42,948 nucleotides of DNA, taken from positions 1-42,948 of the forward strand of contig JARLHP010000086.1 in assembly GCA_031292195.1 (NCBI GenBank), in the 5' to 3' direction. The notes under the pieces are model-generated. The model saw only the letters and a list, made by a program, of their open reading frames with translations, searched no databases and was not told the origin of the DNA. This document shows, one piece after another, positions 1,204 through 15,777 of this stretch; positions within the stretch are counted from its first letter, which is position 1, and the number at the start of each line of letters is the position of its first letter. Source of the stretch: Syntrophobacteraceae bacterium (GTDB lineage: Bacteria > Desulfobacterota > Syntrophobacteria > Syntrophobacterales > Syntrophobacteraceae). The position numbers were made by a program, and so were the translations under genes.

Positions 1204-1312
1204 GCCTATTCCTCCCATGGCCGGGGGCAGGTTGAAAAGAATTAAACACCATAGAAAACTCGCTTCCGTGCAGCTACATTTACTTCGGCATGCGCCCGCG
1301 CCCGGAGAGATA

Positions 1313-1347
1313 TTGCCTCTGGCAAAAAAGTTCGCACCCTTTATAAT
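1313..1347 (+). promoter_or_regulatory. Candidate sigma-70 promoter with overlapping palindrome
   Basis: A perfect TATAAT (1342-1347) lies 17 bases after CTGGCA (1319-1324, four of six matches to TTGACA). The -35 box sits inside the palindrome TTGCC-TCT-GGCAA (1313-1325), a layout compatible with repressor control. This is a consensus match only. The direction agrees with transcription of the bss-type genes. Confidence 0.3.
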
Positions 1348-1496
1348 ACTATACGCCTCCTCAAAAAAGTACAAGAATGTTGTCGTTAAATAATGAGTGT
1401 TGATTTCATTGAATAAATAGCTGCGGAGTGCATCCCTCATCGTTCGGGGTGAAGTTTTTAAAAAAAACAATTGACAAGCATCGCTCAATATGATTC

Positions 1497-1613: not shown

Positions 1614-1827
1614 TAATGAAAAAATCCACAAGGTGGATCGTTCTAAAGGATGACAGCGCATGACGGATCGTGCAAAACGCTGTTTTCTTCTCGGGAATCG
1701 GTACCGTAACCCGTGGCGTTGGACCGTTCCGTTTTGTCTCTAGCTGAGAGTGTTCCGTTAGGCCCGAACAGACGGGGCCTATTCTCCATTAACAGGCGGC
1801 CATTTTGTGTCGGCCGGGAGGTGCGGA

Positions 1828-2859
1828 ATGGAAACTTTTGCGGCAAATCTTGATGCTGGCGGTCTTGCTCGTGAGGCCGACAAGTCGATTCCCCTTATCA
1901 CCGAGATCCAGCGCTTTTGCCTCCAGGACGGGCCGGGAATCAGGACGACGATTTTTATGAAGGGATGCCCGCTTCACTGTCCCTGGTGCCATAATCCGGA
2001 AACACAAAGCCGAAAGCGCGAGATCTATTTTTACGCCGACAAATGCACGGGGTGCGGCCGGTGTGCGCAGGTGTGCACGACGGGGGCCTCGCGGATCGTA
2101 AAGAACGCCGGGGGACAGATTTGCGCTGTGGACCGCTCCAAGTGCCTCGGATGCATGAAGTGCGTGGAGGTCTGTCTTTCCGAAGCACGGGGGGCTGTGG
2201 GCAGAGAGCATTCGATGGAGGAAATAGTGAAGGAAGCGGTCGCCGACCTTCCCTTTTTCAAACAGAGCGGGGGAGGCGTCACTCTGAGCGGCGGCGACCC
2301 GTTGCTCTTTCCGGAGTTTTCTCTAAGACTCGCCTCTCGTCTCAAGCGCGAGGGCATACACGTGGGTATGGAGACCAGCTGTTTTGCGCCATGGAAAGTG
2401 ATACTGCCTCTGCTTGGCGCCATCGACCTTTTTCTGGTGGATATCAAGTCCATGGATGCCGAAAAACACCAGAGCGTCGTGGGCTTTCCGTTGGAGCCCA
2501 TTCTCAAAAACATCCGCGCCCTCATAATGTCGGAGGCCAATGTCCGGCTCCACCTGCCCATCGTCCCCGGATTCAATAATTCTTCAGACGATTTTCAGGC
2601 CTACGTGGAATTCCTGCGACCGTTTTCCGGAAGGCTCACCGGTGTGGACATTCTTCCCTACCACGTCTACGGCGAGCGCAAATACGAATTTCTCGGCCGC
2701 AAGGAGACCTATCGGTACAAGGGGATAAAAGAGATTCCTCCCCGGGAACTGGTTCCGTTCGCCAAGGCCCTGGCCGAGTGCGGCATCATCCAGGTGAGCA
2801 TTGGCGGGATGGTTGGAATGGGTACGCAGAGGGGGCTCAAACCAGGGGAAAGGAGGTGA
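1828..2859 (+). CDS. bssD: Glycyl radical enzyme activating enzyme, BssD type (radical SAM)
   Basis: A 343-residue radical SAM protein that would install the glycyl radical on the BssA-like enzyme encoded two genes downstream. The SAM cluster motif CxxxCxxC is at C47, C51 and C54 (CPLHCPWCH), preceded by GPGIRTT, a hallmark of glycyl radical activases. An inserted ferredoxin-like domain carries two 4Fe-4S motifs at C73/C76/C79/C83 and C106/C109/C112/C116, as in the BssD/PFL-AE-like group with extra clusters. SGGDPL is the GGE-like SAM-binding motif. An upstream in-frame GTG at 1807 is possible, but the ATG at 1828 has GGGAGGTG at good spacing. It is the first gene of the operon, in the same relative position as bssD in known toluene operons. 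Confidence 0.93.
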   Translation: METFAANLDAGGLAREADKSIPLITEIQRFCLQDGPGIRTTIFMKGCPLHCPWCHNPETQSRKREIYFYADKCTGCGRCAQVCTTGASRIVKNAGGQICAVDRSKCLGCMKCVEVCLSEARGAVGREHSMEEIVKEAVADLPFFKQSGGGVTLSGGDPLLFPEFSLRLASRLKREGIHVGMETSCFAPWKVILPLLGAIDLFLVDIKSMDAEKHQSVVGFPLEPILKNIRALIMSEANVRLHLPIVPGFNNSSDDFQAYVEFLRPFSGRLTGVDILPYHVYGERKYEFLGRKETYRYKGIKEIPPRELVPFAKALAECGIIQVSIGGMVGMGTQRGLKPGERR

Positions 2860-2936: not shown

Positions 2937-3113
2937 ATGGCTAGATGTGCAGATTGTGCGTTCTTTTTCCAGGTGCCCGAGGGTGAGGCTGATTTTGAAC
3001 CCGGCAAGGCCGACTGTGTTACGGAACTCAAGGACCAGAAGGGCAAATATTGGCTCTCCAAGCCGGTATTCGAAACGACCGAAACCTGCCCGACTTTTCG
3101 GCAACGTTCATAA
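2937..3113 (+). CDS. bssC: Benzylsuccinate synthase gamma subunit-like small Fe-S protein
   Basis: A 58-residue protein starting MARCADCAFFF with a GAGAGGGA ribosome site. Four cysteines (C4, C7, C27, C51) are spaced as expected for the single low-potential 4Fe-4S cluster of the BssC/TutF family. The conserved core (ADFEPGKADCVTE and KGKYWLSKPVFE) resembles BssC as I know it. In the family this subunit binds the catalytic alpha subunit and helps shape and stabilise it before activation. It lies between the activase and the alpha subunit, 21 bases before bssA, which is the canonical D-C-A order. Confidence 0.9.
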   Translation: MARCADCAFFFQVPEGEADFEPGKADCVTELKDQKGKYWLSKPVFETTETCPTFRQRS

Positions 3114-3134: not shown

Positions 3135-5729
3135 ATGACGACACTGGCTCAGCCCGTAACGTATAGAGGAAAGATCATCAATTTCCCCCCGGCCAATCCC
3201 AAAGAGGCCGATATTCCGGACGAGGAACTCCATGAGCACCTGTTTGCGCCCTCCACCGACAGAACCAGGAGACTCAAAGGGCGATGCAGGTGGAAGCATG
3301 CCTCGGCCGGTGAATTTGTGGAAAAGGGGGTGCGGGCCGGCATCGAAAGAATGAGGCTGGTCACCGAAGCGCACAAGCAATCGCGTGGGAAGCCCGAGGT
3401 CATTCGACGCGCCCTGCAACTGGCGGCCGTTCTGACCAGGGGAACGGTAGTCGTGCAGCAGGATGAGTTCATAATCGGCTATCATGCCGAAGATCCCAAT
3501 ATGTTTCCGCTCTATCCGGAACTTTCCTACATGAACGTCAAAGACTACCTGCAAAGCGACTATTCACCCCAACCCGCCTCCGAAGCCGAAGAGATCAACA
3601 ACTACTGGTGGCCCCACAGCTTGCAGTCCAAATGCGAAAAATATTTCGATCCGGTCGACTTGCAGCGGATGTACCAGGTGAGCACCATGGAGGCGCCATC
3701 GTTTGCGCACGGCTACAACAGCATTGTGCCTCCCTACGAGACCATACTGGAAGACGGCCTTCTGAAGCGGATCGAATTGGCCGAAGAACATATTCGGGAA
3801 GCCAAGGCCGAAATGGCCAAACAGCCGTGGGACGGCACCAAAGGGCTCGACTGGATAGAGAAGATAGATAACTGGGAAGCGATGGTAATCGCTGACAAGG
3901 CGGTTATCAGCTGGGCCCGACGGCATGCCAGACTGTGCGAAATCGTAGCGGAAAACTTTGAAACCGACCCGGCCAGGAAGGAAGAACTGCTGGAGATGGC
4001 CGAGATCAGCCGCCGAGTGCCGGCAACGCCATGCAAAGGGTTAAAGGATGCTTTCCAGGTAAAGTGGTACACCTATATCCTCTGCCACGGCATCGAAAGG
4101 TATGCCAGCGGCTATGCCCACAAGGAAGACAAGGTCCTGTGGCCTTTCTACCAGACAAGCGTGCTCAAAAAGTCCTTCCAGCCGATGACCCACGAGGATG
4201 TGGTGGAACTGGTCGAGATGGAGCGGCTAAAGATCTCCGAACACGGCGCGGGCAAATCCCGAGGCTACAGGGAGATCTTCCCCGGCTCCAACGATCTTTT
4301 CATATTTACCATCGGAGGCACCAACCGGGACGGTTCCGACGGCTGCAACGACATGACGGATGCAATCCTTGAGGGCGCCAGAAATATCCGGACCACCGAG
4401 CCTTCCATTGTTTTCAGATACAACAAGATAAACCGGGAAAAAACTCTCTACCACGTGTTCGAGTGCATTCGGGACGGACTGGGATACCCGTCCATCAAGC
4501 ACGACGAAATCGGCACCGAACAGATGAAATATTACAGCCAGTTCAGCCTCAACAAAAACGGGGCAACCGATGAGGAAGCCCACGACTGGGCCAATGTTTT
4601 GTGCATGTCCCCGGGTCTTGTCGGCAGAAGAAAGACTCAGAAGACCCGCTCGGAGGGCGGTGGCTCGATTTTCCCCGGCAAGATTTTCGAAATCACGCTC
4701 AACAACGGCTACGACTGGTCGTATGCGGACATGCAACTGGGTCCCGAAACCGGATACGCCGAGGACTTCCAGACCTTCGAACAACTCTGGGAGGCTTACA
4801 AAAAACAGTATGCTTATTGCATCAGCCTTCTGATCCGGGCCAAAGACGTGAGCCGTTACATGGAAGGCCGCTTTTTGCAGCTTCCTTTCGTCTCCAGCCT
4901 CGACGACGGGTGCATGGAGCTTGGGGCCGAGGCCTGTTCCCTCTCCGAACAGCCCAACGGGTGGCATAACCCCATTACCACCATCGTTGGCGGAAACTCC
5001 CTGGTGGCCATCAAAAAGCTCATCTATGACGACAAAAAGTATACCATGAAGCAGTTGACGCAGGCATTGAAGGCCAACTGGGAAGGCTTCGAGGCAATGC
5101 AGAAAGACTTCAAGAACGCCCCGAAGTGGGGAAATGACGATGATTACGCCGATGGGATCATCAAGAGCTACTACGAAGAGATCGTCGGCGGCGAGATGAG
5201 AAAGGTTACCAACTACTCCGGTGGGCCGGTACTGCCCGTGGGGCAGGCTGTCGCCCTCTATATGGAAGTCGGCTCGCGCACCGGTCCGACCCCGGATGGC
5301 CGCTACGGCGGAGAGGCCGCCGACGACGGCGGTATCTCCCCCTATTTCGGTACGGACAAAAAAGGTCCGACGGCGGTCCTCAAATCGGTTGCCAAGGTGC
5401 AGGAAAACCAGAAGGCCAACCTGCTCAACCAGCGCTTGTCGGTGCCCATGATGCGCAGCAAGCACGGCTTCGATATCTGGCATGCCTATATGAACACCTG
5501 GCATGATCTCAAAATCGACCACGTGCAGTTCAATGTTGTGAGCACGGCCGAGATGAAGGCGGCCCAAAAAGAACCGGAAAAACACCAGGACCTCATCGTT
5601 CGTGTCGCCGGATTTAGCGCCCGTTTTGTGGACCTGCCGACTTACGGGCAGAATACGATTATCGCCCGCACCGAGCAGCAGTTCGGCGCTGAAGACCTGG
5701 AGTACCTAAACGTCGATTTGACCAACTAA
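3135..5729 (+). CDS. bssA: Benzylsuccinate synthase-type glycyl radical enzyme, alpha subunit
   Basis: An 864-residue glycyl radical enzyme predicted to add a hydrocarbon across the double bond of fumarate. The C-terminal glycyl loop reads RVAGFSARFV with the radical site at Gly826. The thiyl cysteine is Cys490 in LCMSPG. Their separation (336) equals that of Cys493/Gly829 in Thauera BssA, and Arg505, 15 residues after the cysteine, matches the fumarate-carboxylate arginine (Arg508 in BssA). Length and the surrounding TQKTRSEGGGS, EQPNGWHNP and NYSGGPVLPVGQA blocks favour the Bss branch over shorter alkylsuccinate synthases. The exact substrate (toluene, xylene, cresol or other) cannot be read from the sequence. 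Small subunits and activase are adjacent, so the enzyme is complete. Confidence 0.93.
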   Translation: MTTLAQPVTYRGKIINFPPANPKEADIPDEELHEHLFAPSTDRTRRLKGRCRWKHASAGEFVEKGVRAGIERMRLVTEAHKQSRGKPEVIRRALQLAAVLTRGTVVVQQDEFIIGYHAEDPNMFPLYPELSYMNVKDYLQSDYSPQPASEAEEINNYWWPHSLQSKCEKYFDPVDLQRMYQVSTMEAPSFAHGYNSIVPPYETILEDGLLKRIELAEEHIREAKAEMAKQPWDGTKGLDWIEKIDNWEAMVIADKAVISWARRHARLCEIVAENFETDPARKEELLEMAEISRRVPATPCKGLKDAFQVKWYTYILCHGIERYASGYAHKEDKVLWPFYQTSVLKKSFQPMTHEDVVELVEMERLKISEHGAGKSRGYREIFPGSNDLFIFTIGGTNRDGSDGCNDMTDAILEGARNIRTTEPSIVFRYNKINREKTLYHVFECIRDGLGYPSIKHDEIGTEQMKYYSQFSLNKNGATDEEAHDWANVLCMSPGLVGRRKTQKTRSEGGGSIFPGKIFEITLNNGYDWSYADMQLGPETGYAEDFQTFEQLWEAYKKQYAYCISLLIRAKDVSRYMEGRFLQLPFVSSLDDGCMELGAEACSLSEQPNGWHNPITTIVGGNSLVAIKKLIYDDKKYTMKQLTQALKANWEGFEAMQKDFKNAPKWGNDDDYADGIIKSYYEEIVGGEMRKVTNYSGGPVLPVGQAVALYMEVGSRTGPTPDGRYGGEAADDGGISPYFGTDKKGPTAVLKSVAKVQENQKANLLNQRLSVPMMRSKHGFDIWHAYMNTWHDLKIDHVQFNVVSTAEMKAAQKEPEKHQDLIVRVAGFSARFVDLPTYGQNTIIARTEQQFGAEDLEYLNVDLTN

Positions 5730-5880
5730 CCGGGTTCGTGCCGCGCTCTGAGAGCGTGACCGGGGGGGCGCCGACTTTATCGTGCCCACCCGGCCGGCGC
5801 GACGCCCGGGCGCGTGAGTGAACAGCGGCAAACCGATGGGGCGCAAGTCCCGTAATTTCCATGCCTTAAGGAGATACCAA

Positions 5881-6108
5881 ATGGATACTGTTGCTGTAGA
5901 GAGTCTACTCCATCATGAAACAGGAACGTCAAAACCCTGCAAGTCGTGTAAGTGGCAGGTCCCCGACCCCACAAACCCCGATCAGGGCCAGTGCACGGTC
6001 AACCGGACAAAAATGGGATCCGTCTGGAAACGCTGGGTTCGGGATGCGCAAAACATGACCTGCACCAAGCACGAAGTAGGTAAGCTGAGCTTCCGCGATC
6101 ACGTGTGA
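5881..6108 (+). CDS. bssB: Benzylsuccinate synthase beta subunit-like Fe-S protein
   Basis: A 75-residue protein with a strong AAGGAGAT ribosome site. Four cysteines (C20, C23, C38, C61) are placed to bind one 4Fe-4S cluster. The blocks KPCKSCKW, GQCTVNR, GSVWKRWVRD and KLSFRDHV are those I associate with the BssB/TutG family. In that family the beta subunit covers the active-site entrance of BssA and must move for activation. It follows bssA after a 151-base GC-rich spacer, the longest gap in the early part of the operon, completing the D-C-A-B order. Confidence 0.9.
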   Translation: MDTVAVESLLHHETGTSKPCKSCKWQVPDPTNPDQGQCTVNRTKMGSVWKRWVRDAQNMTCTKHEVGKLSFRDHV

Positions 6109-6215: not shown

Positions 6216-7919
6216 ATGAATGAAGCGGCAAGGTCCGAATCCGGGGTGGTCGACCGCTTCCTGGTGCAAGGGGAGCGGGGGTACTCGGCTTTTTGGAGAA
6301 GGGACAAGTCCCCGATAGAAGTTATCGAGCTTGCAAAGCTTCTTGGGAGCCTGAGAAAAATCGGGTCGTTCATAGGTCCCAACCTGGGGACCATCGTTTG
6401 GACAGGCATGGAGCATAAAAACGGCCTTGCTCTCGATCCGACTCCCGTGGTCGGGGTATATCCCGTCCCGGCCGACCGGACCGACATCATGGTCGGCATC
6501 ACCGTCCGCCAGGCCTTTGAAACCAGGGAATGGAGCGAACGGCTCAAAAGAATCGGCATCGAGAAGGCCTCTCCGTTGCCCCCCTATCGGTACAAGCTCA
6601 AACTGTTTCTCGAAATGTGCGAAAAGGTCTACGTGGATTGCCTGGCCAACCGCACCTTTCTGGGTGTCTATACCGAAAAGGCGCGGCTTTGGGAATACAT
6701 CAACAAAGCCCAGGGCTTCCTTACTCCCCCGACCTTTACTCATGTCCTCCATTTATGGTGGAGAATCGCCGCCGACCGCTCCGGTGAAAAATACAAGGAA
6801 CGGTTCCGAGACATAACGGCAGGCAACGTCAGGGGAGTGGGCGATCTCGCCAAGCTCTACGGCAAGCCCATTGCCCTTTTGAATTCAATGGTCGAGCGGC
6901 TCATTGACGAATGCCCGGAAATTCCACGCGTCACCGAACGTAGCGAATACCGTCTCAACCTCTACCTGTCCGTTTGGTCGGAACTTTTGGAGTACGTGAA
7001 GTTCTGGCCCGGAGACCGCTCCGACCCGTTTCTCATTCAGGACCCGGATTTTAGAGAGGTTGAACTCGAAGACGACGAAAAGAAGGCCCTCCAGGAGACC
7101 ATTTACAGCTTTGCCCGTCAGATTGAATCCACGTTCCGCAGGAAGGTGAGTTACAGCGAGGATGTCAGGGGCAATGTCAAGAACATAGATGATGTCGTTC
7201 AAATCGAAAAAAACGACCTCGTTATGGATGCCGCCAACAGGGTGGACAAAGCGCTCCTTCAAAAACTCAAGCTCATCATCAAGGCCGCCTCGCAGAGGAA
7301 GACCACCTACAACAGGGGCTTGACCTCGGGAAAGATCGACCGGAGGAGACTGTACAGGGCGCCTACCTCGGGATTGGCTTTTCACGTCAAGAAAAATGAA
7401 TTCGAACTTCTAAACGATATCGTCATAGTGGTTGACGCATCGGGGTCGATGGCCGATCCGGAGAAGTGGGAACAGACGGAAACAATTGTTCAAACTCTGT
7501 TTACCGCGGTCAAGAGCTTCAATTCGACTTCCAGGATGTTCGCCTACAACGAGGTCAACAATAAGTGCCGATTGACGGAAATCTTCGTCCGGGGGGGATT
7601 TTTCTCCGTGCTTCCTCATGGCAAGACCGCCTCGGGGGAAGCAATAATCGCCACGGCGTTGAGTATGAAAGTCGGACGCAAAAAACCTTTTCTTATTCAT
7701 ATTACGGACGGCGCCTCCAATTGGGGCTGCGGCGTGGGCGACGCCATAGCATTTTGCAAGAAGAAAAGAATTAGTCTCTTAACACTGGGGATAGGTTGTA
7801 CTCCATCCGCTAAGCAATCGTTAACAAAAGAATACGGCAATCTGGTTCAGTATATCGATAAGATTGATGAGCTTCCCAATGTGTTTGGATCATTGATCAG
7901 GTGCATCAACTGGCAATGA
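6216..7919 (+). CDS. von Willebrand factor A domain protein, partner of the MoxR ATPase
   Basis: A 567-residue soluble protein. The C-terminal third is a VWA domain with an intact metal-ion-dependent adhesion site: D407-A-S-G-S411 (DxSxS), a threonine in GKTASGEA and an aspartate in HITDGASN. Residues 1-390 are helical and charged, with no domain I can name. VWA proteins encoded beside MoxR-type AAA+ ATPases (NorD/NorQ, CoxE/CoxD types) act with them to mature or insert metal cofactors into enzymes, so this protein probably assists assembly or reactivation of the adjacent glycyl radical enzyme. The ATG at 6216 has an AGGAGGTGAT ribosome site (6203-6212). An earlier in-frame start at 6195 is less likely. 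Confidence 0.85.
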   Translation: MNEAARSESGVVDRFLVQGERGYSAFWRRDKSPIEVIELAKLLGSLRKIGSFIGPNLGTIVWTGMEHKNGLALDPTPVVGVYPVPADRTDIMVGITVRQAFETREWSERLKRIGIEKASPLPPYRYKLKLFLEMCEKVYVDCLANRTFLGVYTEKARLWEYINKAQGFLTPPTFTHVLHLWWRIAADRSGEKYKERFRDITAGNVRGVGDLAKLYGKPIALLNSMVERLIDECPEIPRVTERSEYRLNLYLSVWSELLEYVKFWPGDRSDPFLIQDPDFREVELEDDEKKALQETIYSFARQIESTFRRKVSYSEDVRGNVKNIDDVVQIEKNDLVMDAANRVDKALLQKLKLIIKAASQRKTTYNRGLTSGKIDRRRLYRAPTSGLAFHVKKNEFELLNDIVIVVDASGSMADPEKWEQTETIVQTLFTAVKSFNSTSRMFAYNEVNNKCRLTEIFVRGGFFSVLPHGKTASGEAIIATALSMKVGRKKPFLIHITDGASNWGCGVGDAIAFCKKKRISLLTLGIGCTPSAKQSLTKEYGNLVQYIDKIDELPNVFGSLIRCINWQ

Positions 7920-8035
7920 GAACTCGTGAATCGGCAAAAACGGAGGCGATGTCCGAATGTCCAAGAGCGGATATCTCTCATGAGAATATAAGTTTCATTT
8001 ATTTGCAGGCTATTCACTCGTAAAGGAGATACGCC

Positions 8036-8902
8036 ATGTCCTTCAAGGAAAACAATGGAATCCCCATTCCGCAGGAAGACCCATATTTCTACATTGACAA
8101 TGAAACGCTGGACATTTTGGAAAGAATTCATCGCATCGCCCAAAGGCACCCCGTAAACGTGCTTGTCGCCGGAAGGCAGGGATGCGGTAAATCTTCGATC
8201 GTTCATCAGTATGCCGCGGTCTATCAGCGACCGCTTGCCACCTTCCAGGTGGGAATCCTTTCCGAACCCGGCCAGCTTTTCGGGGAATACGCCCTGGAAA
8301 GCGGCGAGACCAAGTACAAGCAGTTTCTCTTTCCCCAGGCCATCCAGACCCCGGGTTGCGTCATCCACCTCGAAGAAATCAACCGGCCCGAGCATCCCAA
8401 AGCCCTTAACATGCTCTTTTCCATTCTATCCGACGACCGACAGGTGTGGATGGATGAGCTGGGAATGTTGAAGGTCGCAGAAGGGGTCGTCTTCTTCGCC
8501 ACTCTTAACGAAGGCGAGGAATACGTGGGCACCGAAATGCTCGATCCCGCCCTGCGGGACCGTTTCTACGTGATCTTGATGGACTACCTCCCCAATGCGG
8601 TCGAAAGGGAGGTCTTGATTCGCAAAACGGGTATTACCGAAGAGCAGGCGGACCAGATCATGCACGCCATAAACCTCATTCGCGGCAACTCCGAGATGTC
8701 CCTGGACGTCTCCACGCGAACCAGCCTGATGATAGCAGAGATGGTTGGAGCCGGGGCCACTCTTCGGGAGTCTTTGGTCACCAGCCTTCAAGCCAGCAAG
8801 CCCACTCTCGAATCGATCCTTCTCACTCTCCAGATGCAGAAGGGCTTCCTTGAAAAGACAGAGAGCGAATACCTGAGATTCTGCCGCAACGTTGTCTTGT
8901 AA
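8036..8902 (+). CDS. bssE: MoxR-family AAA+ ATPase, BssE-like
   Basis: A 288-residue AAA+ ATPase. Walker A is GRQGCGKS with Lys52. The Walker B region reads VIHLEEINRP, so Glu113 replaces the usual aspartate while the catalytic Glu114 is kept. Sensor-like FFATLNEGEEY and the arginine finger DPALRDRF are present. BssE of toluene degraders is a MoxR/NorQ-type ATPase encoded just after bssB; here a VWA gene lies between. The likely role is ATP-driven remodelling or activation of the BssABC complex together with the VWA protein. The start is set by AAAGGAGAT upstream of the ATG at 8036. Confidence is high for the family and moderate for the bssE symbol. Confidence 0.85.
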   Translation: MSFKENNGIPIPQEDPYFYIDNETLDILERIHRIAQRHPVNVLVAGRQGCGKSSIVHQYAAVYQRPLATFQVGILSEPGQLFGEYALESGETKYKQFLFPQAIQTPGCVIHLEEINRPEHPKALNMLFSILSDDRQVWMDELGMLKVAEGVVFFATLNEGEEYVGTEMLDPALRDRFYVILMDYLPNAVEREVLIRKTGITEEQADQIMHAINLIRGNSEMSLDVSTRTSLMIAEMVGAGATLRESLVTSLQASKPTLESILLTLQMQKGFLEKTESEYLRFCRNVVL

Positions 8903-8978
8903 CCGGGGGCTCGGCTCAACCGACCGGCGGGACCGCCTCGCGCCATGTCCCGCGCACGGGTGAAAGGAGAAACGATTC

Positions 8979-9263
8979 ATGATGATTTTGGTCAAACTGC
9001 CTTCGGTTTTTGCCTCCCGGGCAGGCGAGCAGAAAAGGATCCGCCTGGATGTGGCGGAAGAAAGGCTGCTTGGCCCCGTGCTCGATCTTTTGGCGCGGAA
9101 GTTCCCGGAGTTGCGCGAGGCCACCGGGATTGGGCCCCAAACCATACCGGACCATATCAACGTCTATCATAACGGCGACAACGTCCGCTATCTGGAAGGC
9201 CTGGACACCATGCTCCGTGACGGGGACACCATACAGATCATTCCCGCCGAAGCCGCGGGATGA
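8979..9263 (+). CDS. ThiS/MoaD-type beta-grasp (ubiquitin-like) protein
   Basis: A 94-residue protein with the pattern of a ThiS/MoaD beta-grasp fold: an N-terminal strand (MILVKLPSVFA), a helix (LLGPVLDLLARKFPEL), a mid-region NVYHNGDNVR corresponding to the usual hN.....R loop, and a final LRDGDTIQIIPAEAAG. The DGDxIxIIP ending followed by a short tail is diagnostic of sulfur-carrier proteins. The tail ends Ala-Gly rather than the normal Gly-Gly. A matching E1-like gene lies one gene downstream. Such pairs form acyl-adenylates and then thiocarboxylates for cofactor biosynthesis, or conjugates. No thiamin or molybdopterin genes are nearby, so the target is unknown. The second codon is also ATG; GGAG precedes the first. 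Confidence 0.82.
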   Translation: MMILVKLPSVFASRAGEQKRIRLDVAEERLLGPVLDLLARKFPELREATGIGPQTIPDHINVYHNGDNVRYLEGLDTMLRDGDTIQIIPAEAAG

Positions 9264-9281
9264 GCGTGAGGGAGAGAGGCG

Positions 9282-9806
9282 ATGATCATCGACAGACCCG
9301 AGTCGCATTTCATCTTCATAGTTCCGCGAAGCCATTATTACGGGGATTACAATTACATCAACTATCAGGGCCGGCAGCTCACAAATAGCCAATACCTCGA
9401 AAACTGGGGAAAGTGGATAGTCCTGGGCCCCGTTGAAGAACTCGCCGGATTGGCCAAAAAGATCGATCCCTACGTCGAGAGGAAAATGATTCCGGCCGCC
9501 AAGTATGACCGTAAGGTCATCGGGGAATTCAAGTTGGGCGACTGCGTGATGTGCGTCTATTGCCACTTCGGGCAAAGGGAGCAAGTATGGGATATTCTTT
9601 GCTCTTTGGGCGTAGAGGAAAAGATGTGGGTCTTTGAGCGGGAGACCATGGAGAGGTGGTTGCCGGGGGGGCGGTTGCTGGAAAGATGGATAAGCGGCCG
9701 GAACATAAGTGAAGAGGAGGCGCGGCGCATGAGAGAAGGGGCAAAGGAGAAATTTCGAAAAATGTTCGAAGATCCCGACGCACTCTTCAGAGGGGTTGAA
9801 CAATAG
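9282..9806 (+). CDS. Unrecognised 174-residue protein with a CxxCxxC motif
   Basis: I do not recognise this family. The protein is soluble, rich in aromatic residues in its first half (HYYGDYNYINYQG) and has C88, C91 and C94 in the pattern CVMCVYC, which could hold a metal or Fe-S cluster or receive sulfur. The C-terminal 50 residues are a charged helix (SEEEARRMREGAKEKFRKMF). It starts at an ATG preceded by GAGGGAGAGAGG, 18 bases after the beta-grasp gene, and ends two bases before the E1 gene. The three therefore look like a single functional unit. It may be the substrate, acceptor or scaffold of the beta-grasp/E1 pair (inference). Confidence 0.7.
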   Translation: MIIDRPESHFIFIVPRSHYYGDYNYINYQGRQLTNSQYLENWGKWIVLGPVEELAGLAKKIDPYVERKMIPAAKYDRKVIGEFKLGDCVMCVYCHFGQREQVWDILCSLGVEEKMWVFERETMERWLPGGRLLERWISGRNISEEEARRMREGAKEKFRKMFEDPDALFRGVEQ

Positions 9807-9808
9807 CC

Positions 9809-10567
9809 ATGGGATATGAATCGCTTGAAGCCCGAAGGCATTCGAGGCAAATCAGCATGCCCGAGATCGGGCCGGAGGGTCAGCGCAAGCTTGGCGGTGC
9901 GAGGGTCCTGGTGCTGGGCGCCGGGGGGCTCGCCTCGGCGGCTCTCTATTACCTTGCCTGCGCGGGGGTGGGAATGCTTGGGATAGCCGATGATGACCGT
10001 ATCGAACTCTCCAATTTGAACCGCCAGATCCTTCATAACCCTCAACGCATCGGAACGCCGAAAGTATTTTCCGCCAAGGATACGATCGCCTGCTTCAGTC
10101 CGGAAACACTAATCGTGACCTATCCCCGTCGGGTGGAATCGGTAATGGAAATGCTCGAAATGGTAAGACACTTCGATGCCGTAATCGATTGCACCGACAA
10201 CTTCGAGGCCCGCGACCTGATTAACCAGTCCTGCATACTGGCCCGAAAACCATGGGTGTACGGGGCCGTTTCCGGGTTCGAAGGACAAATCATGACCATT
10301 ATCCCCGGCAGGGGGCCGTGCTATCGCTGCCTCTATCCCTCCTCGCCCCCATCGACCTCCAATTCGTCCGCACCCGGGGTGATCGGGGTGTCCGCCGGAT
10401 TTGTGGGGATTTTGCAAGCCTCGGAGGTCATAAAACATATCCTCGGACAAGGAAGCTTGCTGGTCGGGCGGTTGCTCTACGCAGACCTGCTGGAGATGGA
10501 TTTCTCGGAACTCCGTGTCTCCATGAATCCCGGGTGCGACTACTGCGGGGGGCACACTGAGCCTTGA
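9809..10567 (+). CDS. ThiF/MoeB/HesA-family E1-like adenylating enzyme
   Basis: A 252-residue E1-like ATPase expected to adenylate the C-terminus of the beta-grasp protein encoded upstream. The nucleotide-binding motif is GAGGLAS (37-43), followed by DDDRIELSNLNRQ with the conserved arginine, K85 region GTPKV, and DCTDN (127-131) with the catalytic Asp130. Zinc cysteine pairs are C171/C174 and C243/C246. At the position of the thioester-forming cysteine of ThiF/MoeB (NC..AGV) this protein has serines (NSSAPGV, 185-191), so it probably only adenylates. It follows the 174-residue gene by two bases, which implies translational coupling. Standalone ThiF and MoeB are similar in length. Confidence 0.87.
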   Translation: MGYESLEARRHSRQISMPEIGPEGQRKLGGARVLVLGAGGLASAALYYLACAGVGMLGIADDDRIELSNLNRQILHNPQRIGTPKVFSAKDTIACFSPETLIVTYPRRVESVMEMLEMVRHFDAVIDCTDNFEARDLINQSCILARKPWVYGAVSGFEGQIMTIIPGRGPCYRCLYPSSPPSTSNSSAPGVIGVSAGFVGILQASEVIKHILGQGSLLVGRLLYADLLEMDFSELRVSMNPGCDYCGGHTEP

Positions 10568-10660
10568 GGGCCAGGTGGCGCTCAAACCCCGGTGCAAGCT
10601 CTTTGGGACCGAGCGGGGAAGAACCCGGCATCACTAATCAACAGCATGGAGATGACCACC

Positions 10661-12640
10661 ATGAAGCTATTCGACCCTATCCGGATCGGGGGAGTGGAAG
10701 TTCAAAACCGCATCGTTATGGCGCCGATGACCACTCATTTTGCAACAGACGGATATGTAAGCGATCGAATGATCCGGTTCTACGACAGGAGGGCGAAGGG
10801 CGGCGTCGGTCTCATCACCATTGAAGACGGAATTGTGGAATGTCCGATCGGCAACAACACCGATCATCCGCTGGCTATCGACAGAGACCGATATTTGCCG
10901 GGTCTAACGAAACTGGCCTCCACCATACGCGGCCACGGGGCGGTCTCCGTCATGCAACTCTCTCATGCGGGCAGAAGGGCCGGGCAGATAGCCCCGGGCA
11001 ATGGATGTCTCAAAAGAACCGGCGGACGGCTGCCCATCGGGCCCTCTCCCCTGGCCCATCCCGCCCCCGGACACGTTGTGCCCAAACCGCTCGGAGTCGA
11101 TGAAATCCAGAGGGTCATCAGCCGCTTCGGTCAAGCTGCCGAAAGGGCCGTAAGGGCCGGGTTCGACATGATCGGCCTCCACTGCGCCCACATGTATCTT
11201 TGCGGCCAGTTCCTGTCTCCCTGGTCGAACCAGCGCACCGACCAGTACGGGGGAAGTCTCGAAAACAGAATGCGGTTCGTGCTGGAAATCGTAAAAAGCA
11301 TAAAAGCCGCGGCCGGCTCTCACATCCCCATAGTTTGCCGAATGAACGGCAAGGAACCCCAAGGGGGCAACTCGCCGGAAGAGATAGCTCAAATCGCTGT
11401 CGCGCTGGAAAAGGCGGGGGTTGACGCCTTGCACATTTCGACCGGCTTTGCCAGTGTTTTATGGGACAGGGATTTTATTCCCGCCGAAGCGACCATCGGC
11501 ATGCCCGAAGGCTGCATTGTGGACTTGGCCGCGGCCATAAAACGGGCGGTTTCCATTCCGGTGATCGCGGTCAATAAGATACGCCATGTTCAGTTTGCCG
11601 AGCGGGTGCTTCAGGAAAACAAAGCCGATATGATCGCACTGGGCCGGCCGCTCCTGGCTGACCCCGACTGGCCGCTAAAAGCCTGCCAAAACCGGGCCGA
11701 AGATATTCGTCCCTGCATTTCCTGCTGTCAGGGTTGCGTGGGAAATATCGAGAAGGGTCTGCCTATAACGTGTCTTACCAATCCGCAACTGGGACAGGAA
11801 AACGAATTGCCGTTTCGGCTGCCCAAAGCCGTCTCCAGTAAAAAGGTCTTGGTGGTAGGCTCCGGTCCTGCCGGACTCGAAGCCGCCCGGACCGCGGCTT
11901 CCCGTGGACATGCCGTAACGATATGGGAAAAGGCCCCGACCATTGGCGGTAAGTTTCAGATGGCCTCCCTATTGCCGGAAAAAGGAGAATTTGACGAGCT
12001 GAAGGACTTTTTGGTGCGCGCGGCTCGAAAAGAGGGTGTCGAGATTGTGGTCGGGAAAAACGCGGATGCAAAATCGGTAAAACTGCTCAATCCTGATGTG
12101 GTGATTCTGGCCACGGGCTGCCGACCGGCCCTGCCGAGCAAGCTGGTGGCCAAGGAAGGCGCAAGCTATCTTTCGGCTGTCGACGTGATCGGAGGCTACA
12201 AGCCCATTGGCGCATCGGTGGCTATAGTCGGAGGAGGCATGGTGGGCCTGGAAACAGCGAAAATACTCTCGGATCAAGGACACGCTGTTACCGTTTTGGA
12301 GATGCTCGACGATGTGGGAACGGATATGCCGGCCATCACTCGCATCCCCCTGCTGCTGGAGCTCGCGGCAAAGGGTGTAAAGCTTTTGCGACGCACCTCC
12401 GCTCGGGAATTCAACGCGGAGGGGGTAAGGTGGGAGCATGGAGGGCCCGACGGCATCCTGAAACGCGGTATTCTAAATGTCGATACGATAATTGTTGCCG
12501 TGGGGGGAACGCCCGAGGACGGACTCAAAAAAGAACTGGAAGGAATAGTCGCACGGGTGTTTCCGGCGGGCGACTGCAAGCGCCCGGGCGACATGCGGGC
12601 AGCTATCGCCGACGGGTATTCGGCTGGGCTTGGCGTTTAG
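10661..12640 (+). CDS. Old yellow enzyme-family NADH:flavin oxidoreductase (2-enoate / dienoyl-CoA reductase type)
   Basis: A 659-residue multidomain flavoprotein. Residues 1 to about 340 form an FMN-binding TIM barrel (RIVMAPMTTHF near the start, catalytic-region HxxH-like GLHCAHMYL, SPWSNQRTDQYGGSLENR). A 4Fe-4S motif follows (CxxCxxxC-x11-C in CISCCQGC...C). The C-terminal half has FAD (VVGSGPAGLEAA) and NAD(P)H (IVGGGMVGLETA) dinucleotide folds. The family reduces activated C=C bonds of enoates or enoyl-CoAs. Here it could act on a product of the fumarate-addition pathway or dispose of electrons; the substrate is not predictable. The start is chosen at the ATG at 10661, nine bases after GGAG, and matches family N-termini. 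ATGs at 10646 and 10652 are alternatives. Confidence 0.88.
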   Translation: MKLFDPIRIGGVEVQNRIVMAPMTTHFATDGYVSDRMIRFYDRRAKGGVGLITIEDGIVECPIGNNTDHPLAIDRDRYLPGLTKLASTIRGHGAVSVMQLSHAGRRAGQIAPGNGCLKRTGGRLPIGPSPLAHPAPGHVVPKPLGVDEIQRVISRFGQAAERAVRAGFDMIGLHCAHMYLCGQFLSPWSNQRTDQYGGSLENRMRFVLEIVKSIKAAAGSHIPIVCRMNGKEPQGGNSPEEIAQIAVALEKAGVDALHISTGFASVLWDRDFIPAEATIGMPEGCIVDLAAAIKRAVSIPVIAVNKIRHVQFAERVLQENKADMIALGRPLLADPDWPLKACQNRAEDIRPCISCCQGCVGNIEKGLPITCLTNPQLGQENELPFRLPKAVSSKKVLVVGSGPAGLEAARTAASRGHAVTIWEKAPTIGGKFQMASLLPEKGEFDELKDFLVRAARKEGVEIVVGKNADAKSVKLLNPDVVILATGCRPALPSKLVAKEGASYLSAVDVIGGYKPIGASVAIVGGGMVGLETAKILSDQGHAVTVLEMLDDVGTDMPAITRIPLLLELAAKGVKLLRRTSAREFNAEGVRWEHGGPDGILKRGILNVDTIIVAVGGTPEDGLKKELEGIVARVFPAGDCKRPGDMRAAIADGYSAGLGV

Positions 12641-12669: not shown

Positions 12670-13248
12670 ATGCCATCGGGCTCGGAATTTCAGTGGTGCG
12701 GGGAAGCGATCCGGCGTGGGGAGATGTTTCTCTCAGAGCATGTGATCAGAGAGCTGGTAGCCTGCAGGGTGAGCCTTTCCATCATCATCTCGGTGCTCTC
12801 GTCGGGGCGGGTGATCGAAATTCATAGCCACCCGCGACGCATGCCGTTTTATGTGGCTCTTGGCTTTGCGGGCGATAAACCGCTGCATGTGATGTTTTGT
12901 GGATCCCAAGAGTCGGGCGTGAGGGTGCTTATCGTCTATCAGCCTGCCTTGCCGCTCTGGTCGACTCCCCGAACCCGGTCCCGATTCAGCGAGGAATACA
13001 TGGAAAACTTCAAAGGCAATTGTCCTTTCTGCACGGGTGCAATAAAGCCGGTTGTCGTGGGAAATTTCGATTACCGGCTCGAAGGTCGACTTTATGTAAT
13101 CAAGGATGTACCTGCCGGTTTATGCGAACAATGCGGTGAAAAATATATCAGTCTCGATACGGCCCGAAAAATGGAGACATTGGCATCGTCGGGCGAATCC
13201 GAGGAACTGGAAGCCGTAAAAGTGCTGAGATTTTCCGCCACTGTATGA
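12670..13248 (+). CDS. DUF4258 domain fused to a YgiT/MqsA-type zinc finger
   Basis: A 192-residue protein with two parts. Residues 1 to about 95 resemble DUF4258 (LSEHVIRELVACRVS, a variable strand region, then VMFCGSQESGVRVLIVYQP). Residues about 108-185 form a YgiT-type zinc finger with CPFC and LCEQCGEKYIS, the N-terminal domain of MqsA-type antitoxins. These two domains are commonly encoded as separate neighbouring genes in toxin-antitoxin-like pairs; here they are one chain with no DNA-binding helix-turn-helix. It starts after GGAGGTGATC and sits inside the operon, so a pathway-linked regulatory role is possible, but none is established. Confidence 0.72.
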   Translation: MPSGSEFQWCGEAIRRGEMFLSEHVIRELVACRVSLSIIISVLSSGRVIEIHSHPRRMPFYVALGFAGDKPLHVMFCGSQESGVRVLIVYQPALPLWSTPRTRSRFSEEYMENFKGNCPFCTGAIKPVVVGNFDYRLEGRLYVIKDVPAGLCEQCGEKYISLDTARKMETLASSGESEELEAVKVLRFSATV

Positions 13249-13287: not shown

Positions 13288-14202
13288 ATGAACGTACTCG
13301 ATATTAGTGAGAGATTCTTCCGTATGCACGGTGACAGGATGATAAGCTCCAAGTTTCCCCGATTGCAGCACAGGATGGCCGTCGGTCTTGTGGGAGAAGG
13401 CTCTGAGTGTTTCGGCTTCGACGATGAGATTCTCCGGGATCGCTACTGGGGACCGGGGTTTTGCATTTGGCTCGAATCCGATGACTATAATGCTCTCGGT
13501 CCGGCGCTCCAGGCCGAATATGAAAGACTGCCAAAGAGAGCCGAGTCTGCTTCCATCCGGGGAAAAACCGGTGTGGGAGTGTTTGAAATAGGGGAATTCT
13601 ACCGCCGCTTCATAGGCTTGACCTGTGTCCCCAACGACCCTCTCAAATGGTTTTATATACCCGAGCCAAACCTTGCCGCCTGCACCAATGGAAAGATATT
13701 CTACGATCCTCCGGGAAGATTTTCAGCCATCAGGCAGGGTCTATTGGCGTTTTTCCCCGAACAGGTGCGGTTTGCGAAAATGGCGTTGCGCTGCGCCGCC
13801 GCTCACATCTGCCAGGACAGCATCCCGGGATTGATCGGACAAAACCAGCCCGCCGAGGCCGAATATGCGGCCACCAAGTATGCTTCCGAAATAATCTCCT
13901 TGGTATTTCTCATCAACCGCCGCTTTCGTCCATCTTATCAATGGAGCCTTAGGGCCATGCGCTCGCTTCGCATAAAGGGGGATTTCTTTTACTCCCGAAT
14001 AAGCGAGATGAACGCTGAACCCCACTTGGGCAAAAAGATGGATTTGATGGAACAGATGAGTTCGGCGGTAATCGGGACACTGAAATGGCTGAAGCTGAGC
14101 ACGGTTGACAGCGATTACCTGTTGGATCACTCCAATGCGATTGCCGAAAAGATCTCGACCAAGAGTATACGGGACAGGATCGATCCGCTGATAGTGGGGT
14201 AA
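13288..14202 (+). CDS. DUF4037 protein, paralogue 1 (degenerate active-site motif)
   Basis: A 304-residue DUF4037 protein. This family resembles nucleotidyltransferases: GEGSE (36-40) followed by an acidic pair. Here the pair reads D51-R-Y53, whereas the paralogue at 14848 has D51-H-D53, so the second metal-binding aspartate is lost and this copy is probably catalytically inactive. Long segments are nearly identical to the paralogue (AVGLVGEGSECFGFDDEI; DPLKWFYIPE; NLAACTNG). A TGGAGGGG ribosome site precedes the ATG. A DUF4125 gene follows after 12 bases. The biochemical role of DUF4037 is not known to me; an active/inactive heteromer with the second copy is an inference. Confidence 0.82.
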   Translation: MNVLDISERFFRMHGDRMISSKFPRLQHRMAVGLVGEGSECFGFDDEILRDRYWGPGFCIWLESDDYNALGPALQAEYERLPKRAESASIRGKTGVGVFEIGEFYRRFIGLTCVPNDPLKWFYIPEPNLAACTNGKIFYDPPGRFSAIRQGLLAFFPEQVRFAKMALRCAAAHICQDSIPGLIGQNQPAEAEYAATKYASEIISLVFLINRRFRPSYQWSLRAMRSLRIKGDFFYSRISEMNAEPHLGKKMDLMEQMSSAVIGTLKWLKLSTVDSDYLLDHSNAIAEKISTKSIRDRIDPLIVG

Positions 14203-14214
14203 AGGGGAAATCCA

Positions 14215-14814
14215 TTGGAAAAGGTAATGAAGATGGGAAACCTGCCGGAAGCCCTGGAGTTGGTCGTTGCGGTGCTCGACTCCGAATGGGAGATGTTTCG
14301 GAGGGTGAGAAGCGCCTACCCCGTGGCATGCCAGCAATCTCCGGCTGCATTTCGCCAAATTCGGGCAAGCATCTTCGAACTATGGACCGAGGAGATGCTT
14401 GCCTCCTATCTTGTCGATCTACTCCAGGCCGAAGCTGCCGGTCGAAACCTTCTGGCCGAAAAATACGCCCGCATGGACAATCTGATTCCCCGAACGAATT
14501 TCAACCCCTTGATTGAAAGGATCGTCGCGGTTGATAGCCATTGGCAGGCGGAAGTAAGAAATAAATATCCCCATGTCTATCGTGTGGCATGCAGGGGAAT
14601 GGAACCAACCGATGATGGCAGGAATTTTAGCGTCTATCTTCGCTGCGAACTGGAAACCTACGGCCACAAAACTATCGAATTATACTATCGGCAGATCGAC
14701 CAGGCTCTTGCCAACGGGGAAAACCTCACGCTCAAAATGCTCGAAAGATTGGTCGAAAAGGGTGGGTTCAAAGATTTGGAGCATGCTGAACTCTACTTCA
14801 AAAGTCTCGGATGA
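14215..14814 (+). CDS. DUF4125 family protein
   Basis: A 199-residue protein that I recognise as DUF4125 from the blocks EWEMFRRVRS, ACQQSPAAFRQIRASIF, GRNLLAEKYARMDN, WQAEVRNKYPHVY and VYLRCELETYGHKT. It appears all-helical and soluble, with no catalytic motif I can name. DUF4125 and DUF4037 domains are often adjacent or fused in anaerobes, so it likely works with the flanking DUF4037 proteins. The TTG at 14215 is taken as start because AAAGGGGAAA lies just upstream; ATG codons at 14227 and 14233 are alternatives. Confidence 0.78.
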   Translation: MEKVMKMGNLPEALELVVAVLDSEWEMFRRVRSAYPVACQQSPAAFRQIRASIFELWTEEMLASYLVDLLQAEAAGRNLLAEKYARMDNLIPRTNFNPLIERIVAVDSHWQAEVRNKYPHVYRVACRGMEPTDDGRNFSVYLRCELETYGHKTIELYYRQIDQALANGENLTLKMLERLVEKGGFKDLEHAELYFKSLG

Positions 14815-14847
14815 AAAAATCTCTTTCCACGTTGAAAGCAGGCGCGC

Positions 14848-15777
14848 ATGAAGGGGCTCGATCTCAGCCGGAGATACTTTCACACCCACGGTGAGAAAAT
14901 GATAGCGGCCAGGTTTCCCGGTTACCGGGACCGGATCGCCGTCGGTCTTGTGGGCGAGGGGTCGGAGTGTTTCGGCTTCGACGATGAGATCTCCCGCGAT
15001 CACGATTGGGGCCCCGGCTTTTGCCTCTGGCTGGCCCCGGACGACTTTGCGGCTGTGGGTTCGGCGCTCCAGGCCGAATATGAAAAATTGCCGAAAAAGT
15101 TTGAGAACTTCCAGCGCCTTGAATCCTTTTGGGGAAAATCCCGGGTGGGAGTGTTTGAAACCGGGGCTTTTTATCGCCGCTTCCTGGGATTGCCTCATGT
15201 CCCCGACGACCCTCTGAAATGGTTTTATATCCCCGAAGCAAACCTTGCCGCCTGCACCAATGGAAGGGTATTCCACGACCCTTGCGGAAAATTCTCGGCG
15301 ATTCGGGAAGGCCTTCTGGCTTTTTTCCCCGAAGATGTGCGCCTGGCGAAAATAGCCCTTTGTTGTGCCTCGGCAGCTCAGGCCGGTCAATACAATCTGA
15401 GGCGCATGATCGGGCGCGGACAAATTTTTCCCGCTCAATACGCGGTTACAAAGTTCTCTTCCGAAATTATCGCTCTGGGGTTTCTCCTCAATCGATGTTT
15501 CCGCCCTTTTTACAAGTGGAGCCATCACGCGGTGCGCTCGCTTTCCTTAATGGGAGATTTCCTTTACTCCCGCATCGAAGACCTGGCCGTAGAACCTGAT
15601 ATGAGCAAAAAAATGAATCTCATTGAAAAGATCAGCGCCGCGGTAATCGGGTCGCTGCGCCTGGAGCATCTCAGCACCCTCGACAGTGACTTTCTTCTGG
15701 ACCACGCCAATGAGATAGCCCGAAAAATCTCGGACCCCCGTGTATTGGAAAGGATTAAACCCTTAGGTGAGAGATGA
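14848..15777 (+). CDS. DUF4037 protein, paralogue 2 (intact DxD motif)
   Basis: A 309-residue second DUF4037 protein, clearly paralogous to the product at 13288. It keeps the nucleotidyltransferase-like signature: GEGSE (36-40) and D51-H-D53-W-G. It carries a short insertion around residues 85-95 (KFENFQRLESFWG) relative to paralogue 1. The stop overlaps the ATG of the next gene (ATGA), indicating translational coupling to the SDR gene. If the family is a nucleotidyltransferase, this is the active copy. Ribosome site weak. Substrate unknown. Confidence 0.82.
   Translation: MKGLDLSRRYFHTHGEKMIAARFPGYRDRIAVGLVGEGSECFGFDDEISRDHDWGPGFCLWLAPDDFAAVGSALQAEYEKLPKKFENFQRLESFWGKSRVGVFETGAFYRRFLGLPHVPDDPLKWFYIPEANLAACTNGRVFHDPCGKFSAIREGLLAFFPEDVRLAKIALCCASAAQAGQYNLRRMIGRGQIFPAQYAVTKFSSEIIALGFLLNRCFRPFYKWSHHAVRSLSLMGDFLYSRIEDLAVEPDMSKKMNLIEKISAAVIGSLRLEHLSTLDSDFLLDHANEIARKISDPRVLERIKPLGER

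What the first reader, a model, noticed from the sequence alone, without database searches (positions are those of the whole stretch)
6216..10567. VWA + MoxR + ubiquitin-like protein + E1 enzyme cassette inside a glycyl radical enzyme operon
Right after the bss-type genes come five tightly spaced genes: a VWA protein, a MoxR ATPase, a ThiS/MoaD-like protein, an unknown CxxCxxC protein and a ThiF/MoeB-like E1. Only the MoxR gene (bssE) is a known bss companion. No thiamin, molybdopterin or tungsten-enzyme genes are present to explain the sulfur-carrier pair. This could be a dedicated system that makes a sulfur-containing cofactor, repairs Fe-S clusters of BssB/BssC, or tags and recycles a damaged glycyl radical enzyme in an ATP-dependent way.
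Basis: partly seen in the sequence, partly recalled or inferred. Interest (0 to 1): 0.8.

Follow-up and report, generated by a model that had tools for sequence, protein, structure and literature searches.

The report
Ubiquitin-like module for hydrocarbon-activating radical enzymes
Next to the genes of a toluene-type radical enzyme sits a three-gene set (a ubiquitin-like protein, its activating enzyme and an unnamed protein family) that follows this class of anaerobic hydrocarbon-attacking enzymes in the two groups of bacteria tested, probably to help build, repair or control them.

Summary
Five intact, tightly spaced genes (VWA, MoxR, UBL, X174, E1; 6216-10567) follow a complete bssDCAB set. 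BssA is benzylsuccinate-synthase-like. VWA and MoxR are the known companions bssF and bssE, so only the trio UBL-X174-E1 is new; X174 matches no Pfam or NCBIfam family. X174 tracks fumarate-adding glycyl radical enzymes (XSS: bss/ass type): in 395 genomes of the phylum, 12 of 15 with X174 have an XSS against 9 of 380 without (p=5e-15); in the class of a Desulfotomaculum genome, 9 of 10 against 4 of 103 (p=1e-9); neither test is corrected for kinship. None of 53 X174 loci matched the genome's own aldehyde oxidoreductase or MoeA. UBL lies within 3 kb of X174 in 44 of 53 loci, MoxR within 10 kb in 28. UBL/X174-adjacent MoxR proteins form their own clade. Cys94 is invariant in X174 (52 of 52 copies), the CxxCxxC is not. 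Best reading: E1 charges the UBL, X174 takes the charge at Cys94 and works with MoxR-VWA to mature or repair the radical enzyme. The chemistry (sulfur transfer or conjugation) is inferred. Ten searches of an open-access library listed no paper that makes this link.

The parts
1807..2859 (+). BssD-type glycyl radical activase (radical SAM)
   Evidence: TIGR04003 2.6e-142, 473.6 bits, just under the curated cut-off of 496.45
2937..3113 (+). BssC-type small subunit, 58 aa
   Evidence: read from DNA; 84% match in TSK
3135..5729 (+). BssA, glycyl radical subunit
   Evidence: 1580 bits to TutD 4pkc; in the printed alignment the catalytic Cys, the glycyl loop and the two pocket isoleucines are kept
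5818..6108 (+). BssB small subunit (start codon uncertain)
   Evidence: PF18512 5e-39
6216..7919 (+). VWA protein, BssF-type partner of MoxR
   Evidence: PF00092 4.6e-6; MIDAS DxSxS; name BssF after PMC7285207
8036..8902 (+). MoxR-class AAA+ ATPase, BssE-type
   Evidence: PF07728 3.2e-19; Walker A GRQGCGKS; falls in the GRE-side MoxR clade
8979..9263 (+). UBL: ubiquitin-like / sulfur-carrier protein, 94 aa, ends -EAAG
   Evidence: PF02597 5.4e-9, SAMP1 1.4e-13 below its curated cut-off; nearest solved relatives of the family profile 3dwg and 4n6e
9282..9806 (+). X174: unnamed family, invariant Cys94
   Evidence: no Pfam/NCBIfam family; no Pfam family in more than 1 of 16 members; family alignments; AF2 pLDDT 91.5
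9809..10567 (+). E1: MoeB/ThiF-type adenylyltransferase with CxxC...CxxC
   Evidence: PF00899 2.9e-71; conserved residues
10592..12640 (+). FadH/Old-yellow-enzyme-type oxidoreductase; neighbour, role in the system not shown
   Evidence: PF00724 2.3e-66; first part kept at 78% at the contig end in TSK

Best explanation
UBL-X174-E1 is an accessory module of fumarate-adding glycyl radical enzymes. The MoeB-like E1 adenylates the C-terminal glycine of the UBL (inferred from family). The activated UBL, most likely as a thiocarboxylate, is passed to X174, whose invariant Cys94 takes the sulfur or forms a thioester (inferred). X174 works with the MoxR-VWA remodeller (BssE/BssF here, a second pair in other genomes), which opens the enzyme so that the payload reaches it during maturation or repair. 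Shown: gene set, conservation, co-occurrence with XSS genes, neighbourhood with MoxR-VWA, invariant Cys94. Inferred: activation, transfer, target and outcome. I rate sulfur delivery above protein conjugation at about 3 to 2.
For: X174 tracks XSS: 12 of 15 X174 genomes against 9 of 380 others in the phylum sample, p=4.9e-15; 9 of 10 against 4 of 103 in the class of G429, p=1.2e-9. Of 37 genomes reached through 38 of the 48 loci (at least five of them are also in the phylum sample), 26 have a BssA match of >=400 bits, and 6 more match an ass-type query at >=44% identity, partly as contig-end fragments. UBL within 3 kb of X174 in 44 of 53 loci; in the fetched DNA E1 in 29, MoxR in 28, VWA in 26, GRE in 18 (many contigs are short). 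MoxR tree of 39: one clade (98/96) holds all 13 copies adjacent to UBL/X only, the other 15 of 16 GRE-adjacent ones and the window's. Cys94 in 52 of 52 copies from 49 loci, against Thr in 5 of 5 members of a paralogous family without a UBL recognised nearby. UBL profile nearest to CysO (3dwg) and 4n6e; UBL C-terminus Gly in 41 of 44. Precedents: MoxR/VWA pairs that mature metalloenzymes, one with a sulfuration step (PMC4240915, PMC9976466; abstracts).
Against: The trio is not needed for every XSS: 9 of 21 and 4 of 13 XSS genomes have no full X174 match. In 15 of the 44 loci with a UBL no E1 was found in the fetched DNA. No cysteine desulfurase or rhodanese turned up among the Pfam-scanned window genes, so a sulfur source is not named. 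Subfamily Xb (7 loci) sits beside a GRE without a UBL in the fetched DNA, so part of X174's role may not need the UBL. The window's own X174 departs from the C-D-x-R motif (H95, G97). Five of 37 X174 genomes showed no XSS with either query (G399, G407, G408, G416, G420). No expression or biochemical data were seen.
Confidence: 0.5

Rival explanations
1. Protein tagging: the E1 charges the UBL, X174 acts as an E2-like carrier through Cys94, and the UBL is attached to lysines of the glycyl radical enzyme or its activase, switching it off or marking damaged enzyme for unfolding by MoxR-VWA.
For: The UBL profile also matches SAMP1 proteins, and SAMP1 linkage is reported to inhibit molybdopterin synthase (PMC4443979, start of abstract in the listing). 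Invariant Cys94; neighbourhood with AAA+ ATPases.
Against: No convincing JAMM-type deconjugase: one motif match in 52 loci, in an ORF antisense to a regulator gene (a crude regular expression). The E1 has no Cys beyond the zinc ligands that is kept in more than 14 of 28 copies. E2-fold proteins and proteases were not searched for systematically.
Confidence: 0.25
2. Sulfur carrier for a small molecule or tRNA, co-regulated with hydrocarbon use but not acting on the glycyl radical enzyme.
For: MoeB/ThiF-like E1, CysO-like UBL; UBL/E1 operons of unknown metabolic role are known (PMC1779556, passages).
Against: The neighbours that recur in my homology scan are MoxR, VWA, GRE and activase; that scan used a fixed set of 29 query proteins, so an unlisted biosynthetic gene could be missed. 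A radical SAM/SPASM protein occurs near X174 in 6 of 53 loci.
Confidence: 0.17
3. Passenger: a mobile or neighbouring gene set that happens to travel with XSS gene clusters.
For: Sporadic distribution; rare (48 loci in a collection of 84,980 species). The co-occurrence tests do not correct for kinship.
Against: In several genomes X174 and the XSS genes lie on different contigs or tens of kb apart and still co-occur (for example G182, G347, G366, G426); it comes with MoxR proteins of two clades; record titles span Desulfobacterota, Bacillota and Dehalococcoidia.
Confidence: 0.08

Closest known systems
bssDCABEF operon of anaerobic toluene degraders
   Same: BssD, C, A, B, a MoxR-class ATPase and a VWA protein
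   Different: VWA precedes MoxR here, and UBL-X174-E1 follow; no such genes are named in the passages of PMC5874301 and PMC7285207 that I saw
CoxD/CoxE and NorQ/NorD MoxR-VWA couples
   Same: AAA+ plus VWA partner that matures an enzyme; CoxD serves a sulfuration step (abstracts)
   Different: target here would be a glycyl radical enzyme, with a UBL/E1 pair added
CysO sulfur carrier (3dwg; the name CysO is recalled, the hit is titled 9.5 kDa culture filtrate antigen) and the ThiS/MoaD protein of 4n6e
   Same: nearest solved relatives of the UBL profile
   Different: no JAMM protein found by motif scan; cysteine-synthase partners were not looked for outside the window
MoaD-MoeB of Mo/W cofactor synthesis
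   Same: UBL family and MoeB-type E1
   Different: no AOR or MoeA match in 53 X174 loci; the genome has such a set on another contig
BLES03 / eIF4E / SpvC fold group
   Same: weak Foldseek matches of the X174 model: BLES03 1ztp prob 0.99 but E 0.038, TM 0.38; eIF4E and OspF lower; these families share a fold (PMC4159009, passages)
   Different: no match with E <= 0.001; the Pfam model Bles03 did not match any of 16 members

Membership tests
bss operon (benzylsuccinate synthase and accessories) | BssA with catalytic Cys and glycyl loop, BssB, BssC, BssD | tested here: met
   BssD model just under its curated cut-off
bss operon (benzylsuccinate synthase and accessories) | MoxR (BssE) and VWA (BssF) genes | tested here: met
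   names from PMC7285207
MoxR-VWA couples | Walker A in the ATPase and MIDAS in the VWA protein, genes adjacent | tested here: met
MoaD-MoeB (Mo/W cofactor) | neighbouring aldehyde oxidoreductase or MoeA | tested here: not met
   no tblastn match in 53 X174 loci with the genome's own proteins as queries, which do match their own locus
MoaD-MoeB (Mo/W cofactor) | neighbouring moaA, moaC or moaE | tested here: inconclusive
   none among the Pfam-scanned window ORFs; not looked for in the other loci
ThiS-ThiF (thiamine) | ThiF-type extra catalytic Cys beside the zinc ligands (recalled, not from a call) | tested here: not met
   beyond the zinc ligands only positions 128 and 142 reach 30% Cys, 14 of 28 each
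ubiquitin-like carriers (CysO/SAMP/Urm1 type) | beta-grasp family match and C-terminal Gly | tested here: met
   C-terminal Gly in 41 of 44, GG in 29 of 44; SAMP1 model below its curated cut-off
ubiquitin-like carriers (CysO/SAMP/Urm1 type) | thiocarboxylate or protein conjugate formed | not testable with these tools
   needs biochemistry
JAMM-containing prokaryotic UBL/E1 operons | JAMM/JAB peptidase in the neighbourhood | tested here: not met
   regular-expression scan, 1 doubtful match in 52 loci
BLES03/SpvC-type lyases | shared fold and catalytic residues | tested here: inconclusive
   weak fold match; no residue-level structural alignment available

The most novel reading that the evidence does not exclude
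X174 founds a new class of E2-like or sulfur-acceptor proteins in bacteria, and UBL-X174-E1 with MoxR-VWA is a dedicated ubiquitin-like pathway that switches, repairs or matures the radical enzymes which open anaerobic hydrocarbon degradation.
Probability: 0.2. Interest if true: 0.9.

Novelty: new variant of a known kind. Interest (0 to 1): 0.7.

Why it matters
Fumarate-adding enzymes start the anaerobic breakdown of toluene and alkanes in oil reservoirs, sediments and aquifers, and the function of their conserved partners BssE and BssF is described as uncertain (PMC7285207). A UBL/E1 pair and a new protein family that follow these enzymes give a concrete handle on how they are built or kept active, and would add a new client to ubiquitin-like chemistry in bacteria.

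Tried and rejected
Mo/W or thiamine cofactor role: rejected as the main reading because no AOR or MoeA match lies in 53 X174 loci and the genome has a separate ThiS-family/ThiF/MoeA/AOR locus. CxxCxxC metal site in X174: rejected, only C94 is kept. Anti-phage role: PADLOC matched the E1 (generic E1-E2 models) and, weakly, the ATPase, and not the VWA, UBL or X174 proteins. JAMM deconjugase: one doubtful motif match. Fold of X174: Foldseek weak; hmmsearch of PDB sequences gave chance-level hits only; the Bles03 family rang in 0 of 148 genomes and 0 of 14 controls, so that test says nothing. A second AF2 job on the Bacillota paralogues gave a poor model (pLDDT 51.7) and was not used. A plasmid search with BssA: 120 records, the 25 listed all below 30% identity, other glycyl radical enzymes where annotated. 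Gene fusions between cassette members: none among the profile hits in 53 loci. Paper searches (all ten used; 48 and 74 asked about BLES03 and CoxD): none of the rows listed ties an XSS to a UBL/E1 set, but most listings were cut (for example 20 of 26, 40 of 208), one search was spoiled because 'ThiS' matched the word 'this', and the library lacks most subscription journals.

That holds for 8 loci but not for the window, L043, L046, L051, L053, L060 and L062, and it is no longer used as evidence.
Full report
What is there. The window carries a bss-type operon: BssD (1807-2859), BssC (2937-3113), BssA (3135-5729), BssB (5818-6108), then a VWA protein (6216-7919), a MoxR-class ATPase (8036-8902), a ThiS/SAMP1-type ubiquitin-like protein (UBL, 8979-9263), a 174-residue protein without any Pfam or NCBIfam family (X174, 9282-9806), a MoeB/ThiF-type E1 (9809-10567) and an Old-yellow-enzyme-type oxidoreductase (10592-12640). 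All frames are intact. BssA scores 1580 bits against the Thauera benzylsuccinate synthase alpha chain and keeps, in the printed alignment, the catalytic cysteine, the glycyl loop and the two isoleucines that PMC12583861 names as toluene-pocket residues (I matched the positions by eye, allowing an offset of one). The genes from BssD to E1 and the start of the oxidoreductase are in the same order in Desulforhabdus sp. TSK at 78-93% identity.

What is known about it. The MoxR and VWA genes are bssE and bssF; [quoted passage not shown] PMC5874301 says that BssE is essential and that a bssF disruption prevents growth on toluene, though an effect on genes downstream was not excluded (passages).

Does the trio track the radical enzyme? 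I tested X174 as its marker. In a sample of 395 genomes of the phylum X174 was found in 15. Genomes with a BssA match of at least 400 bits, my working line for bss/ass-type enzymes (XSS), number 21; the best match per genome leaves a gap between 429 and 369 bits there and between 442 and 347 in the second sample, but single matches between 337 and 403 bits occur. Twelve genomes have both, 3 have X174 only, 9 have XSS only; Fisher p = 4.9e-15. The 3 exceptions are G041, whose X174 contig carries an ass-type cluster but whose best radical enzyme match to an ass-type query is 35%; G070, with a 33% radical enzyme on the same contig; and G130, which has ass-type fragments at 69% to 94%. In the class of a Desulfotomaculum genome (113 genomes, class not named by the tool) X174 is in 10, XSS in 13, both in 9; p = 1.2e-9. 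A further 7 genomes there had weak matches of 20-27 bits that belong to a paralogous family and were not counted. That class was chosen because it contains X174 genomes, neither test corrects for kinship, and at most two candidates per genome were scored. At least five of the 37 are also in the phylum sample.

Neighbourhoods. The scan of 84,980 species genomes gave 48 X174 loci, in Desulfobacterota, Bacillota and Dehalococcoidia by record title. Over 53 loci (window, these 48 and 4 more) UBL lies within 3 kb in 44; within the fetched DNA, E1 in 29, MoxR in 28, VWA in 26, GRE in 18, activase in 16, a radical SAM/SPASM protein in 6 (many contigs end close by). In 15 of the 44 loci with a UBL no E1 was found. 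None of the 53 matched the genome's own AOR or MoeA proteins, which did match their own locus. Seven loci form a second subfamily (Xb) beside a glycyl radical enzyme, six with an activase and four with another AAA+ protein, without UBL. L046 has bssCAB-MoxR-VWA-X174 without a UBL within 10 kb. Of 11 XSS loci from X174-free genomes, 7 have MoxR and VWA beside the radical enzyme; the others are two loci of one genome with a BssA at 50%, one ass-type locus and one 3-kb contig. None of 8 XSS loci from genomes with X174 elsewhere shows the pair, three of them on stretches under 10 kb; but the window and L043, L046, L051, L053, L060 and L062 do have a MoxR on the radical enzyme's side, so there is no simple rule. 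A tree of 39 MoxR proteins splits at 98/96 into a clade with all 13 copies adjacent to UBL/X only and a clade with 15 of 16 radical-enzyme-adjacent ones, including the window's. L051, L060, L075 and L076 carry both kinds. MoxR-VWA pairs of two clades have thus come to lie with UBL-X174, which speaks for a working link.

The proteins. X174: Cys94, Lys74 and Arg77 are each kept in 52 of 52 copies from 49 loci; the paralogous Bacillota family, homologous by profile comparison (hhalign 97%, E 2.5e-11), has Thr, Lys and Asn there in 5 of 5. Cys88 and Cys91 of the window are not conserved. 41 of 52 copies end in Gln. The AF2 model is good (pLDDT 91.5), but Foldseek finds only weak matches, led by BLES03, with eIF4E and OspF among the next (and unrelated AcrB chains between them). 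PMC4159009 groups the first three in one fold; I treat this as a lead. UBL: ends in Gly in 41 of 44, GG in 29, the three others being Dehalococcoidia ending in GA; nearest solved relatives of its profile are 3dwg and 4n6e. E1: Arg72, Lys85, Asp127, Asp130 and seven others invariant in 28; zinc cysteines in 26 of 28, the two exceptions being the divergent E1s of L064 and L071; no other Cys in more than 14 of 28, as in MoeB rather than ThiF (the comparison with ThiF's cysteine is recalled).

How it may work. The E1 should activate the UBL tail; with no conserved cysteine of its own outside the zinc site, the next acceptor must be sulfide, a persulfide or another protein. X174, coded next to the UBL and with an invariant cysteine that its paralogues lack, is the natural candidate. 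MoxR-VWA couples help to insert cofactors into enzymes, including a sulfuration step in CO dehydrogenase (abstracts). I therefore propose delivery of sulfur, or of the UBL itself, to the radical enzyme complex during maturation or repair. That X174 was not found in 13 of 34 XSS genomes of the two samples says that it is an aid, not part of the basic chemistry. Sulfur delivery and conjugation are not separated by anything here.

Novelty. None of the rows listed by the ten paper searches ties an XSS to a UBL/E1 set (most listings were cut, and most subscription journals are not held). The survey of UBL/E1 operons PMC1779556 has no hit for glycyl radical, MoxR or benzylsuccinate, and the Smithella cisternae genome paper PMC5606693 has none for ThiF or MoeB (listing). 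UBL/E1 operons and MoxR-VWA couples are known kinds; their union around hydrocarbon-activating radical enzymes, with a new protein family, is a new variant.

Noticed in passing
L184, L185, L186, L187, L188: A paralogous family of X174 (130-153 aa, no Pfam family in 4 members scanned) in genomes of the Desulfotomaculum class; beside L185's copy lie a DUF815 AAA+ ATPase and a dynamin-like GTPase, and similar ORFs flank the others.
   Followed up: partly
L077, L082, L083, L084, L085, L086, L090: Subfamily Xb of X174 beside a distinct glycyl radical enzyme, with activase genes in six (two in L077, L082 and L083) and another AAA+ protein in four.
   Followed up: partly
window 9564-9572: The window's X174 has His95 and Gly97 where 45 of 46 Xa copies have Asp and Arg; could be real or an assembly error.
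   Followed up: no
window 13288-15774: DUF4037-DUF4125-DUF4037 gene row; the same two domains are LrcM and LrcL of a limonene operon in a Syntrophobacteraceae genome.
   Followed up: no
window 12670-13248: One frame with a DUF4258 domain and a YgiT-type zinc finger, a toxin-antitoxin-like pairing in one ORF.
   Followed up: no
window 1-1488: A frame with two TetR-type N-terminal domains in tandem upstream of bssD on the other strand, possibly the regulator.
   Followed up: no
L073 1379-3231: Three X174 copies in tandem in a Dehalococcoidia MAG.
   Followed up: no
L054, L055, L057, L058, L065, L080 (and L029, scanned with Pfam): A radical SAM/SPASM protein near X174, possibly a further partner.
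   Followed up: partly
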